Shown here piece after piece: positions 36,722 through 41,076 of a DNA stretch of 64,000 nt (positions are counted from its first letter, which is position 1; the number at the start of each line of letters is the position of its first letter). The position numbers and the translations under genes are program-made. The notes under the pieces were generated by a model. That model had not been told where the DNA came from and ran no database searches. It saw only the letters and a list, made by a program, of their open reading frames with translations. The stretch is taken from the NCBI GenBank assembly GCA_040882465.1, contig JBBEBG010000017.1:29297-93296 (forward strand). The letters are read 5' to 3'. The DNA comes from Gemmatimonadota bacterium (GTDB lineage: Bacteria; Gemmatimonadota; Gemmatimonadetes; Longimicrobiales; Gaopeijiaceae).

Positions 36722-36765
36722 AATGAGCCGGCTGGGGATCGAACCCAGGACCTACGGATTAAAAG
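36722..36765 (-). repeat. Displaced 3' end of tRNA-Lys (outer att site of the island)
   Basis: Forty-four bases are identical to 41033-41076. In tRNA terms they run from the anticodon loop to the discriminator base plus two bases. No 5' half of a tRNA is attached, so this is not a functional tRNA. It is the original 3' end of the tRNA-Lys gene, separated from its 5' half by the insertion. This is the standard signature of tyrosine-recombinase integration into a tRNA gene. Confidence 0.9.
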
Positions 36766-36790
36766 ACCACCGGCCACGATCTTCACTCCG

Positions 36791-36940
36791 ATGGCCGGCG
36801 TCGAAATCTACGTATCTGAGGACGATCTAATCGGTTACTTCGATCAGGCCATCGCGTCCTGGCAGCGATTAGCCTCGATGATGGCCGAGGGGAAGCAGGT
36901 CTCGGACATGGCTTGCCCCACGGAAGCACGCTGTTCTTAG
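36791..36940 (+). CDS. Possible 49-residue ORF at the island's left edge
   Basis: An ATG at 36791 opens a short frame ending TAG at 36938-36940, giving MAGVEIYVSEDDLIGYFDQA and an acidic remainder. It is not similar to any family I recognise. It has no convincing Shine-Dalgarno and its end overlaps the vsr stop by 4 bases. It could be a chance frame, a small regulator, or a remnant of a lost gene. Confidence 0.25.
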   Translation: MAGVEIYVSEDDLIGYFDQAIASWQRLASMMAEGKQVSDMACPTEARCS

Positions 36941-37467
36941 ACGCTCAATGAGCGGACAGCACTGAGGCCCCTGGACGAATCCAGTCGCACTCGGGGAGAC
37001 ACCGCGATGGGAGCGGGTCTTGAGGGAAGGTCTTCCCGCTCGCGAAGACGCTTGGAGAGACGCCGGCGGATCCTGCGATGCGTGTGTTTCAGCTCCTCGG
37101 GCCGCAGCTCATGTTCCCAGAATCGCCACACTGCGAATCCAGCGTTTCGGAGGAGCCTTCGGTTCTTCCCGTCCCGTTTCACGTTGCGTGCAAGCTTCGG
37201 CTCCCAGTAGTCGCGGTTGGATTCCGGAACACTCCCGTGCTCGGGGCAGAGGTGAAAGAAGCAGCCATCCACAAACAGCGCCAGCCAGAGCGACGGAATT
37301 AGCAGGTCAGGCTTTCCCGGCAGCGTGGCCACGTTCCGCTCAATGCGCCATCGATGGTCCAGCTCGCCTCGCACGGCTTCGTATAGCCGGTTCTCGGGGA
37401 TAGTACCGCTACTTCGGATGGCCGACATGATGCGACTCCGTCCCTCTGAGCTCACATGGTCAGTCAT
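36937..37467 (-). CDS. vsr: Very short patch repair (Vsr) endonuclease
   Basis: A 176-residue T:G mismatch endonuclease, which nicks beside thymine produced by deamination of 5-methylcytosine. The family start is MTDHVSSEGRSRIMSAIRSS; the catalytic Asp54 is in LPGKPDLLIP, and FVDGCFFHLCPEH and YWEPKLARNVKRDGKN follow as in E. coli Vsr. I chose ATG 37467 because it has a GGAGGT site inside the end of the HNH gene and lies 2 bases after its stop; an ATG at 37491 is possible. Its presence fits the two cytosine methyltransferases upstream, whose product it would protect from C-to-T mutation. Confidence 0.92.
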   Translation of the reverse strand: MTDHVSSEGRSRIMSAIRSSGTIPENRLYEAVRGELDHRWRIERNVATLPGKPDLLIPSLWLALFVDGCFFHLCPEHGSVPESNRDYWEPKLARNVKRDGKNRRLLRNAGFAVWRFWEHELRPEELKHTHRRIRRRLSKRLREREDLPSRPAPIAVSPRVRLDSSRGLSAVRSLSV

Positions 37468-37469
37468 CG

Positions 37470-38717: not shown

Positions 38718-39731
38718 TCAGAGCAGGGAAGGCTGGATAGGGTGCTCAGCCTCAAGCCTCGATCCATGGGCGATGGCGCTCTCCGACGACCCCGATGCGC
38801 AGTCGAGAATTGAGGCGGCCACGGCCCGAGCGAGCGGCGGAGGCACAGCGTTCGCAATTTGCCGGTAGGCTGAGGTCCGTGTGCCGGCGAAGGCGAACCA
38901 ATCTGGAAAACCCTGTATCCTCGCGGCCTCCCTGGGGGAAATACGGCGGTGATTGTCCGGATGATGCAGGACTACGACTCCACCGCGATCATCCCCCCGT
39001 GCCGTCAACGTTGGCGAGGGCATCGCAGGATTGATTCGACGGTGACCGAGGTAGCCATTGAACCGCAGCTTGTAGCGCGAGTAGCCGTCGTGGTTCGGCA
39101 AGTCATGCTCGGCATCCGGCTCCGGCACGTCCGCCAGCGCATCCCCCACCCCGATCCAGGGCGACAGACCCAGGGCAGCCGCCTCACTTGAGTCAGCGTG
39201 AGTGCGCACTGGAGGAAAGGCGCTCAGGTCGCAAGCAACGTCCTCCCTGGCTCCAAGCAGGAACACTCTCTGCCGGGACTGCGGCACTCCGTAATCTGCC
39301 GCGTTGAGCAGCGAATAGGCCACTGTGTAACCGACCTTGGCAAAATCGGCCAGAATCTCTTGAAAGACGACTCCGTCGGCGAGGCTCAGGATACCCTTGA
39401 CGTTCTCGGCCAAGAAGAACTGCGGCCGGATGTTTCGAAGGATGCGCACGAACTCCAGATAGAGCTTGTTTCGACCATCCTCGCTTGACCTGGTAATGTT
39501 AGCGACCGAAAACCCCTGGCACGGAAATCCTCCGATTATCACGTCCCCGTGAGGGACGGAACTGGCCTCAACTCCTGCCAGGTCGGCAAGGACAATGTGG
39601 TCGCTAATGTTCTTCCGGTAGGACTCGACCGCATCCGCGTAGCTGTCCACTGCCCATACGAGATCAAAGCCCGCCTGGCGGAAGCCGAGGTCGAGTCCGC
39701 CAGCTCCGGAAAACAGCGACACTGCCTTCAC
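38718..39731 (-). CDS. DNA cytosine-5 methyltransferase 1
   Basis: A 337-residue C5-cytosine methyltransferase. Motif I is VSLFSGAGGLDLGF, the catalytic Cys71 is in GGFPCQGFS, motif VI is AENV (108-111), motif VIII QSRQRVF (151-157), and motif IX PSPTLTARG (238-246). The stretch between VIII and IX, which holds the target recognition domain, is short (about 80 residues), which suggests a short recognition sequence. I chose the GTG at 39731, which overlaps the stop of the upstream methyltransferase by 4 bases; a GTG at 39749 is the alternative. It is followed directly by the HNH endonuclease. Confidence 0.92.
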   Translation of the reverse strand: MKAVSLFSGAGGLDLGFRQAGFDLVWAVDSYADAVESYRKNISDHIVLADLAGVEASSVPHGDVIIGGFPCQGFSVANITRSSEDGRNKLYLEFVRILRNIRPQFFLAENVKGILSLADGVVFQEILADFAKVGYTVAYSLLNAADYGVPQSRQRVFLLGAREDVACDLSAFPPVRTHADSSEAAALGLSPWIGVGDALADVPEPDAEHDLPNHDGYSRYKLRFNGYLGHRRINPAMPSPTLTARGDDRGGVVVLHHPDNHRRISPREAARIQGFPDWFAFAGTRTSAYRQIANAVPPPLARAVAASILDCASGSSESAIAHGSRLEAEHPIQPSLL

Positions 39732-40693
39732 TTCGCCACCCCGGCACACTCCTTGGCCTCGGATGCGTCCTGTTCCATACGAGGGATACCTTCAGCGAGA
39801 CGAGCAGCGAACACGGGAGGCACTGCGTTGCCCACCTGCCGGTACATGGAGTTGAGCGACCCGAAGAATTGGAAGTCGAGCGGAAAAGACTGAACGATTG
39901 CGGACTCTCGCACCGATAGCCTCCTGTGATGCCTCGGATGAGCGAGTGCGCAGACGCCGCCACCCCCATCGCCACGGGCGAGGATTGTGGGAGACGGCTT
40001 GTTCGGATCTGTCCTTCGATGCCCGGTGAAATTCCGGTCAGTCACCTTGTACTGAGAACTTACGTGGTTGAGAAGGTCGTGATGCTCTTCGGGGTCAGGA
40101 ATGTCCCGCAGCGCCTCACCAATGGTAACCCAGGACTTCCGAAGAAGCGTTGCTTCTCTTGCATGGGTCGGACTCGGCATCCGTAGAATTTCATCGATGT
40201 CGTGCCGAGTGCCCAGAAAGAACACGCGACGACGCGATTGCGGAACCCCGAAGTCGGCCAGGTTCACGAGATGGTGGGAGACCCTGTACCCGCAATCCTT
40301 GAAGTCTTGAAGTATCATTTCGACGACCTTGCCCCCATCAAGGCTCAGGATCCCCCGAACGTTCTCCGCGACAAAGTACGGCGGCTGCTTTTCTCTGAGA
40401 ACTCGCACGAACTCAAGGTAGAGACGGTTCCGCGAATCTTCGGGAGAACGCTTCAGATTCGCTCGGGAAAATCCCTGGCAAGGAAACCCTCCGATGATGA
40501 TCTCCCCATCCGGGATTTCTGATTCGGGAAGCTCAGAGATGTCCCCGAGGACAACATGGTCTCCCAAGTTGAACCGATAGGTGTCAACGCAGTCGGCATC
40601 GACGTCGTTCGCCCAGGCCAACTCGTGGCCCGCGATCCGGAAACCCAGGTCCATCCCACCAGCTCCGGAGAAAAGGGAAATAACGCGACTCAT
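39728..40693 (-). CDS. DNA cytosine-5 methyltransferase 2 (paralogue)
   Basis: A 321-residue enzyme with the same motifs: ISLFSGAGGMDLGF, Cys72 in GGFPCQGFS, AENV, QSRRRVFFLG and PSPTILARG. It is clearly related to its neighbour, with matching blocks RNRLYLEFVRVLRE and GILSLDGG versus RNKLYLEFVRILRN and GILSLADG, but the recognition regions differ. Two such paralogues in one system usually methylate the two strands of an asymmetric site. The ATG at 40693 follows GAGG; an in-frame ATG at 40762 would add an unlikely N-terminus. It is the first gene of the operon. Confidence 0.92.
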   Translation of the reverse strand: MSRVISLFSGAGGMDLGFRIAGHELAWANDVDADCVDTYRFNLGDHVVLGDISELPESEIPDGEIIIGGFPCQGFSRANLKRSPEDSRNRLYLEFVRVLREKQPPYFVAENVRGILSLDGGKVVEMILQDFKDCGYRVSHHLVNLADFGVPQSRRRVFFLGTRHDIDEILRMPSPTHAREATLLRKSWVTIGEALRDIPDPEEHHDLLNHVSSQYKVTDRNFTGHRRTDPNKPSPTILARGDGGGGVCALAHPRHHRRLSVRESAIVQSFPLDFQFFGSLNSMYRQVGNAVPPVFAARLAEGIPRMEQDASEAKECAGVAK

Positions 40694-41034
40694 CTTCGAT
40701 TGCCTCGGAATGGAACTCAAGAATCTTGGCCGGCGGAGCGATCTGAACGGGGCCGTCGCCATGCACCATGAGAAGAGCTCGGGCCATGCGTCAAGTTAAC
40801 AGCTCGGCCCGTTTGGAAGTCCGGTCCATCAACATCGTAGGTCATGAAGTTGGGCCGGCGTATAGCAGCTTGACTCACGGGCAGCCGCTCCCTGACCCGC
40901 CCTTGATCCCTCGGCTGCAGCACGCGCCGGCCAACCCGACCGTGTCTGCACTGTCACTGCACTCGCGCAGATATGCGTCGATCTGGCCCGAACTCCTACT
41001 CAGTCATCTTATTGTCACATCTTAGGTTATCCAA
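40694..41034. other. Leader region of the island operon next to the tRNA
   Basis: No convincing gene is seen in these 341 bases. A TTGACG box on the minus strand (about 40791-40796) could be a -35 for the methyltransferase operon, but the matching -10 is poor. This is where an integrase or its remnant would be expected for a tRNA-targeted element; none of the frames looks like one. Short GCACTG-type repeats occur near 40940-40965. Confidence 0.4.
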
Positions 41035-41076
41035 TGAGCCGGCTGGGGATCGAACCCAGGACCTACGGATTAAAAG
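41033..41076 (-). repeat. Inner att site: 44-bp repeat restoring the tRNA-Lys 3' half
   Basis: These 44 bases are identical to 36722-36765 and supply the anticodon loop through the discriminator base of the intact tRNA-Lys. The identity stops exactly at the 5' edge of the anticodon loop, where tyrosine recombinases often cross over. The surrounding bases on both sides differ between the copies. Confidence 0.9.

What the first reader, a model, noticed from the sequence alone, without database searches (positions are those of the whole stretch)
36722..41076. A complete restriction-modification-repair module inserted into tRNA-Lys
Two perfect 44-bp direct repeats bracket 4.3 kb. One is the 3' half of an intact tRNA-Lys, the other is the displaced original 3' end. 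The enclosed block has lower GC and holds only four genes in one operon: two cytosine-5 methyltransferases, an HNH endonuclease and Vsr. Crossover at the anticodon loop is the classical tRNA integration pattern. So this is a small integrated element whose whole visible cargo is a DNA-defence system.
Basis: partly seen in the sequence, partly recalled or inferred. Interest (0 to 1): 0.85.

Follow-up and report, generated by a model that had tools for sequence, protein, structure and literature searches.

The report
Integrase-less tRNA-Lys island carrying restriction-modification
A 4.3-kb piece of foreign DNA sits in this bacterium's only lysine tRNA(TTT) gene and carries just one four-gene set, a predicted type IIS restriction-modification system plus a repair enzyme for the mutations that its own methylation causes; it is a tidy member of a known class of genomic island, unusual mainly because no integration gene is left in it.

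Summary
A perfect 44-bp direct repeat (36722-36765 and 41033-41076) brackets 4,267 bp. One copy is the 3' part, from the first anticodon-loop base to 2 nt past the end, of an intact tRNA-Lys(TTT). The other is the displaced original end. No third copy exists in the 3.5-Mb genome. The enclosed DNA is the compositional outlier of the window (60.4% versus 67.3% G+C) and holds one tight operon: two cytosine-5 methyltransferases, an HNH nuclease and Vsr. The nuclease's N-terminal 300 residues have the predicted fold of type IIS recognition domains (Nt.BspD6I, BpuJI, FokI), which explains the two methyltransferases (one per strand of an asymmetric site). The M1-M2-R cassette recurs collinearly in a Prevotellaceae MAG and in five IMG/VR contigs (R truncated by the contig end in one). 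The repair gene varies: Vsr behind it here, Vsr in front, a MutY/Mig-like glycosylase, or no recognised repair gene. Another genus of the family has a 9.6-kb island at the same tRNA with a repeat of identical length and endpoints, different cargo and no integrase; two more have islands with integrases there. Integration is well supported; current mobility and enzyme activity are untested.

The parts
36722..36765 (-). Displaced original 3' part of tRNA-Lys (distal attachment-site copy)
   Evidence: 44/44 identity to 41033-41076; scores only 22.6 bits as tRNA
36766..36936 (.). Distal end of the island, no recognised gene
   Evidence: no Pfam/PHROGs/NCBIfam match for the short ORF there; no similar sequence in related loci
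36937..37491 (-). vsr: very-short-patch repair (T:G mismatch) endonuclease
   Evidence: Pfam Vsr, NCBIfam TIGR00632 above cut-off; aligns with E. coli Vsr structures 1cw0, 1vsr
37470..38717 (-). Restriction endonuclease candidate: type IIS-like recognition domain (about residues 13-298) fused to HNH_2 nuclease domain (about 300-385)
   Evidence: HNH_2; model mean pLDDT 65 overall, mostly 80-90 over residues 90-280; VIA-align Z 17 to Nt.BspD6I, 16 to BpuJI, 8.9 to FokI
38718..39749 (-). M2: DNA cytosine-5 methyltransferase
   Evidence: Pfam PF00145 258.5 bits; 56-61% identity to the second methyltransferase of most homologous cassettes
39728..40693 (-). M1: DNA cytosine-5 methyltransferase (ORF extends to 40762; homologues start at 40693)
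   Evidence: Pfam PF00145 244.2 bits; 52% identical to M2; best solved relative M.HaeIII
40694..41032 (.). Proximal end of the island and upstream region of the operon; place where an integrase gene would be expected
   Evidence: no integrase by profile of nine own integrases; no sigma70-like promoter found
41033..41076 (-). Proximal attachment-site copy, regenerating the 3' part of tRNA-Lys
41035..41107 (-). Intact tRNA-Lys (TTT), the insertion target
   Evidence: ARAGORN and Rfam
41185..41847 (-). rnhB (RNase HII), conserved 5'-side neighbour of tRNA-Lys in the family
35409..36689 (+). TadG-like von Willebrand factor A protein, distal neighbour, not conserved at this site

Best explanation
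This is a small genomic island that entered the tRNA-Lys(TTT) gene by site-specific recombination at the anticodon loop, the way tyrosine integrases do it. The incoming DNA carried a copy of the tRNA 3' part, so the gene was regenerated and the old 3' part was pushed 4.3 kb away. Its only cargo is a predicted type IIS restriction-modification system: M1 and M2 would each methylate one strand of an asymmetric site, the HNH protein would cut unmethylated DNA near that site, and Vsr would repair the T:G mismatches that arise when the methylated cytosines deaminate. No integrase gene is left; most likely it was lost by deletion after or during integration, so the island is probably now a resident of the chromosome. 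Shown: repeat, target, uniqueness, foreign composition, gene families, recurrence of the cassette, absence of an integrase, second island with the same endpoints. Inferred: integrase catalysis, enzyme specificity and activity, phage defence, loss of the integrase.
For: Unique perfect 44-bp repeat ending at the anticodon loop. G029 carries an independent island, also with a 44-bp repeat with the same endpoints (L061:3537-3580 and 13163-13206) but a different tRNA sequence and cargo. Integrase-bearing islands at the same tRNA: G412, 50-bp shared sequence, integrase 120 bp from the tRNA and a matching repeat at both island ends; G287, 48 bp shared. Foreign composition. Full-length nuclease found in no other of the 395 and 394 genomes sampled from phylum and class, only its HNH domain. 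Collinear M1-M2-R cassette in L117, L181, L190, L191, L193 and (R truncated by the contig end) L192. In L190 it lies beside tRNA-Ser and a truncated tyrosine integrase (arm and core-binding domains only), a plausible picture of an island losing its integrase. Type IIS recognition fold.
Against: No integrase or recognisable remnant inside. No integrase arm-type repeats found at the two ends. No genome of the same genus is available to show the empty site with the same two flanks. The predicted nuclease model is uncertain in its C-terminal HNH part (pLDDT under 50). No biochemical data.
Confidence: 0.85

Rival explanations
1. The island never had its own integrase: it is a cargo-only element inserted (and possibly still movable) in trans by an integrase of another element, or a Xer-type host enzyme, that recognises the tRNA-Lys attachment site. 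(This is a rival to the 'integrase lost' step only, not to insertion at the tRNA.)
For: Both the window island and the unrelated G029 island lack an integrase and have intact 44-bp copies with the same endpoints. Integrases using this tRNA exist in the family (G412, G287). [quoted passage not shown] The own genome has nine tyrosine-recombinase genes, several next to other tRNA genes.
Against: No other element with a tRNA-Lys attachment copy exists in this genome, so no present helper is visible. The two islands share no recognisable end sequence besides the tRNA part. The L190 cassette sits by a truncated integrase, which favours loss.
Confidence: 0.35
2. The R-M unit inserted itself with a long target duplication, as proposed for R-M systems of Helicobacter pylori, without any integrase; its landing in a tRNA gene is coincidence.
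For: R-M units flanked by long, variable duplications without integrases are described (Nobusato 2000 and Furuta 2010, as cited in PMC3874152 and PMC3031569).
Against: The duplication coincides with the standard tRNA sub-site (anticodon loop to 3' end), regenerates the tRNA gene, and is matched base for base in position by a non-R-M island in G029; this would be a large coincidence.
Confidence: 0.06
3. Homologous recombination (single crossover) between a circular DNA bearing a tRNA-Lys 3' fragment and the chromosome, not a site-specific recombinase.
For: 44 bp of identity can in principle serve RecA-dependent recombination (established knowledge, not tested).
Against: Does not explain why the identity stops at the same anticodon-loop base in two independent islands.
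Confidence: 0.06
4. Assembly or binning artefact.
For: The genome is in 41 contigs with 4.55% estimated contamination.
Against: The island lies inside a 120.9-kb contig, flanked on the tRNA side by the rnhB-rplS-trmD block conserved in the family; a 44-bp repeat is shorter than a read.
Confidence: 0.02

Closest known systems
tRNA-gene genomic islands of the Islander type (Mantri and Williams; PMC4383910)
   Same: Regenerated tRNA gene, displaced 3' fragment in the same orientation marking the other end, crossover at the anticodon-loop sub-site
   Different: No integrase gene inside, which the Islander algorithm requires; much smaller (4.3 kb) with one operon as sole cargo
Type IIS restriction-modification systems (R.BspD6I/BpuJI/FokI recognition fold; HNH-type IIS enzyme HpyAII, PMC7494987)
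   Same: Recognition-domain fold, nuclease domain at the C-terminus, two methyltransferases as expected for an asymmetric site
   Different: HNH_2 nuclease domain rather than PD-(D/E)XK, about 12% sequence identity to the solved recognition domains; specificity unknown; gene order M1-M2-R plus Vsr
Dcm-Vsr repair pairing and the Mig/MutY-type thymine glycosylase pairing
   Same: A 5mC methyltransferase linked to an enzyme that repairs the T:G mismatches made by deamination
   Different: Within one cassette family the repair gene is exchanged: Vsr 3' (window), Vsr 5' (L190), MutY/Mig-like glycosylase (L181), no recognised repair gene (L117, L191, L193)
R-M units inserted with long target duplication (Nobusato 2000, cited in PMC3874152)
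   Same: R-M genes between direct repeats with no mobility gene
   Different: Here the repeat is exactly a tRNA attachment-site segment

Membership tests
tRNA-gene genomic island (Islander signature) | Intact tRNA gene with a displaced fragment of its 3' part in direct orientation | tested here: met
tRNA-gene genomic island (Islander signature) | Crossover at one of the known tRNA sub-sites | tested here: met
   Repeat starts at anticodon-loop base 32; G029 has the same endpoints
tRNA-gene genomic island (Islander signature) | Tyrosine integrase gene inside | tested here: not met
   No hit in the window ORFs with an integrase profile; none of the nine genome integrases is here; Pfam of the four genes
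tRNA-gene genomic island (Islander signature) | Uninterrupted site in relatives | tested here: inconclusive
   Most family genomes have a single tRNA-Lys copy next to rnhB, but none shares the 36,700-side flank
Type II (IIS) restriction-modification system | Cytosine-5 methyltransferase genes with conserved motifs | tested here: met
   PF00145 in both; PCQ, ENV and QxRxR motifs present in the translations
Type II (IIS) restriction-modification system | Adjacent restriction endonuclease with recognition and nuclease domains | tested here: met
   HNH_2 domain with conserved His/Asn residues across six homologues; type IIS recognition fold Z 16-17
Type II (IIS) restriction-modification system | Cleavage and methylation of an asymmetric site | not testable with these tools
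   Needs purified enzymes or methylome data
Vsr endonuclease | Score over the curated family cut-off | tested here: met
   TIGR00632 107.4 bits, cut-off 97.85
Vsr endonuclease | T:G mismatch nicking activity | not testable with these tools
   Biochemical assay needed
Prophage, ICE/IME or phage satellite | Phage structural, relaxase or replication genes | tested here: not met
   Only four genes, all R-M or Vsr
R-M insertion with long target duplication | Duplication of arbitrary target sequence, of variable length | tested here: not met
   Repeat is a tRNA attachment segment; same 44-bp length and position in G029

The most novel reading that the evidence does not exclude
The window island and the G029 island are two members of a class of cargo-only islands that never encode an integrase and are moved in trans between tRNA-Lys genes by a helper recombinase, with R-M or other cargo swapped in.
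Probability: 0.2. Interest if true: 0.6.

Novelty: new variant of a known kind. Interest (0 to 1): 0.42.

Why it matters
It is a nearly minimal case: a tRNA island whose whole cargo is one self-contained restriction-modification-repair cassette. It allows two questions to be tested: whether islands without an integrase can still move, and how mobile R-M systems avoid the mutational cost of 5-methylcytosine. The cassette family has at least three repair arrangements around the same M1-M2-R core, which suggests that repair enzymes are recruited repeatedly. The type IIS recognition fold joined to an HNH nuclease is a source of possible new site-specific nucleases.

Tried and rejected
Empty-site search by the TadG-like gene: 4 of 121 family genomes have it, and in none of the others is it next to tRNA-Lys. 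N-terminal part of the nuclease in genome contigs: no relative. Nuclease against phages and plasmids: only HNH-domain matches, and no full-length match with the L190 protein. Integrase remnant in the 171-bp and 339-bp ends: none found. Shared attachment-arm sequence between the window and G029 islands: none. G202 was set aside as evidence: its extra tRNA-Lys fragment lies 143 bp away, and the integrase-like ORF is on the other side of the tRNA. G305's two hits look like one tRNA at overlapping contig ends. First structure model with three sequences was too poor to use. Promoter and terminator scans gave no more than chance.
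Full report
OBSERVATION. The repeat is exact over 44 bp: 36722-36765 and 41033-41076. The right copy is the 3' part of an intact tRNA-Lys(TTT) at 41107-41035 on the - strand (77.7 bits in Rfam). The repeat reaches from the first base of the anticodon loop to two bases beyond the tRNA 3' end. In the 3.53-Mb genome no third copy exists at up to three mismatches, and the left copy alone scores as a tRNA only below the cut-off (22.6 bits). The 4,267 bp in between have 60.4% G+C against 67.3% in the rest of the window, at the 0.2 percentile for segments of that length, and the most deviant dinucleotide signature of the window.

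CONTENT. Four genes run on the - strand with abutting or overlapping frames. In order of transcription they are M1 (cytosine-5 methyltransferase, 40693 or 40762 to 39728), M2 (cytosine-5 methyltransferase, 39749-38718; 52% identical to M1), an HNH protein (38717-37470) and Vsr (37491-36937). Families. Vsr aligns with the E. coli enzyme structures. No integrase, relaxase, phage or replication gene is present. A profile built from the nine tyrosine recombinases of the same genome finds nothing in the window.

WHAT THE HNH PROTEIN IS. Only its C-terminal HNH_2 domain matches family models. With six full-length homologues (alignment A5) a structure model was obtained: mean pLDDT 65 overall, mostly 80-90 over residues 90-280, and under 50 in the HNH part. 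Foldseek and VIA-align place residues 13-298 on the type IIS enzymes Nt.BspD6I (Z 17), the BpuJI recognition domain (Z 16) and FokI (Z 8.9); the BspD6I and BpuJI matches stand well above the next unrelated rows at Z 7.7, FokI only a little. These enzymes recognise asymmetric sites (established knowledge), and such systems often need one methyltransferase per strand. That fits the pair M1 and M2. The inferred system is therefore type IIS-like with an HNH nuclease; a characterised HNH-type IIS enzyme is HpyAII (PMC7494987).

THE CASSETTE IS PORTABLE. M1-M2-R in the same order occurs in a Prevotellaceae MAG (L117; R 38%, M1 56%, M2 56% identity), in a phage-like IMG/VR contig with a terminase gene (L181; R 44%), in IMG/VR contigs L190, L191 and L193, and in L192 where R is truncated by the contig end. 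In L117 each methyltransferase is closest to the one in the same position, so the pair is old. The full-length nuclease was found in no other genome among 395 sampled from the phylum or 394 from the class, which together with composition argues for horizontal entry. The repair gene differs: Vsr after R here; Vsr before M1 in L190; a MutY/Mig-like HhH-GPD glycosylase after R in L181; no recognised one in L117, L191 and L193. Whether the L181 glycosylase acts on T:G is not tested. In L190 the cassette lies beside tRNA-Ser and a tyrosine integrase truncated before its catalytic domain.

HOW IT GOT THERE. Among the family genomes, 93 of 121 have a tRNA-Lys match, most with one copy; where examined it lies next to or near rnhB-rplS-trmD in most. 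G029, of another genus, has a 9.6-kb island at the same tRNA. Its direct repeat is also 44 bp, with the same start and end relative to the tRNA although the tRNA sequence differs. Its cargo is unrelated: a 1,351-aa protein without a Pfam match, an IS3-like transposase part and others; no integrase was found. G412 has the intact gene and a displaced copy on different contigs (50 bp shared), with an integrase 120 bp from the tRNA and a matching repeat at both ends of the island; G287 similarly (48 bp shared). The two integrases are not similar to each other by BLASTP. tRNA-Lys is therefore a hotspot used by several recombinases, with identity ending in the anticodon loop or stem. The Islander paper describes the same signature and the anticodon sub-site and notes that some islands encode no integrase (PMC4383910).

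WHY NO INTEGRASE. Two readings remain. Loss of the gene after or during entry is preferred because of the truncated integrase beside the L190 cassette. Entry in trans is the rival, favoured by the G029 coincidence. No element that could serve as a helper with a tRNA-Lys attachment copy is present in this genome. A self-insertion of the R-M unit with long target duplication, known from Helicobacter (PMC3874152, PMC3031569), is disfavoured because the repeat is precisely a tRNA attachment segment and a non-R-M island has the same one.

LIMITS. No same-genus genome is held, so the exact empty junction was not seen. The TadG-like neighbour is rare in the family (4 of 121 genomes) and may itself be a recent arrival near this site. 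Activity, specificity, phage defence and mobility are untested.

VERDICT. It is a new variant of known kinds (tRNA island; type IIS-like R-M with a linked repair gene), of moderate interest.

Noticed in passing
L061 (G029:C102:20001-40000), 3537-13206: 9.6-kb island in tRNA-Lys of another genus with the same 44-bp endpoints, no integrase, and a 1,351-aa protein without any Pfam match as main cargo.
   Followed up: partly
L190, 2958-8191 (IMGVR_UViG_643348538_000001): tRNA-Ser, truncated tyrosine integrase, then Vsr-M1-M2-HNH: a homologous cassette in another tRNA-linked island.
   Followed up: partly
L181, 328-1152 and 6095-9979: Phage-like contig carrying the M1-M2-R cassette with a MutY/Mig-like glycosylase, and also an ArdC N-terminal-domain antirestriction protein.
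   Followed up: partly
L163 (G000:C39:10000-22000), 4047-7669: Dense array of 19 tRNA genes in the own genome, including two tRNA-Ser(CGA) copies.
   Followed up: no
L157 (G000:C18:95000-99000), 1825-2811: Tyrosine integrase next to tRNA-Leu(CAA), interrupted by an in-frame TAG.
   Followed up: no
L172 (G202:C23:213000-232900), 18561-18776: A tRNA-Lys 3' fragment 143 bp from an intact tRNA-Lys with a different anticodon stem, with an integrase-like ORF on the other side; looks like a collapsed insertion.
   Followed up: partly
window 33963-36689: TadE/TadG-like cluster beside the island; the TadG-like gene is found in only 4 of 121 family genomes, so it may itself be a mobile or recent block.
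   Followed up: partly
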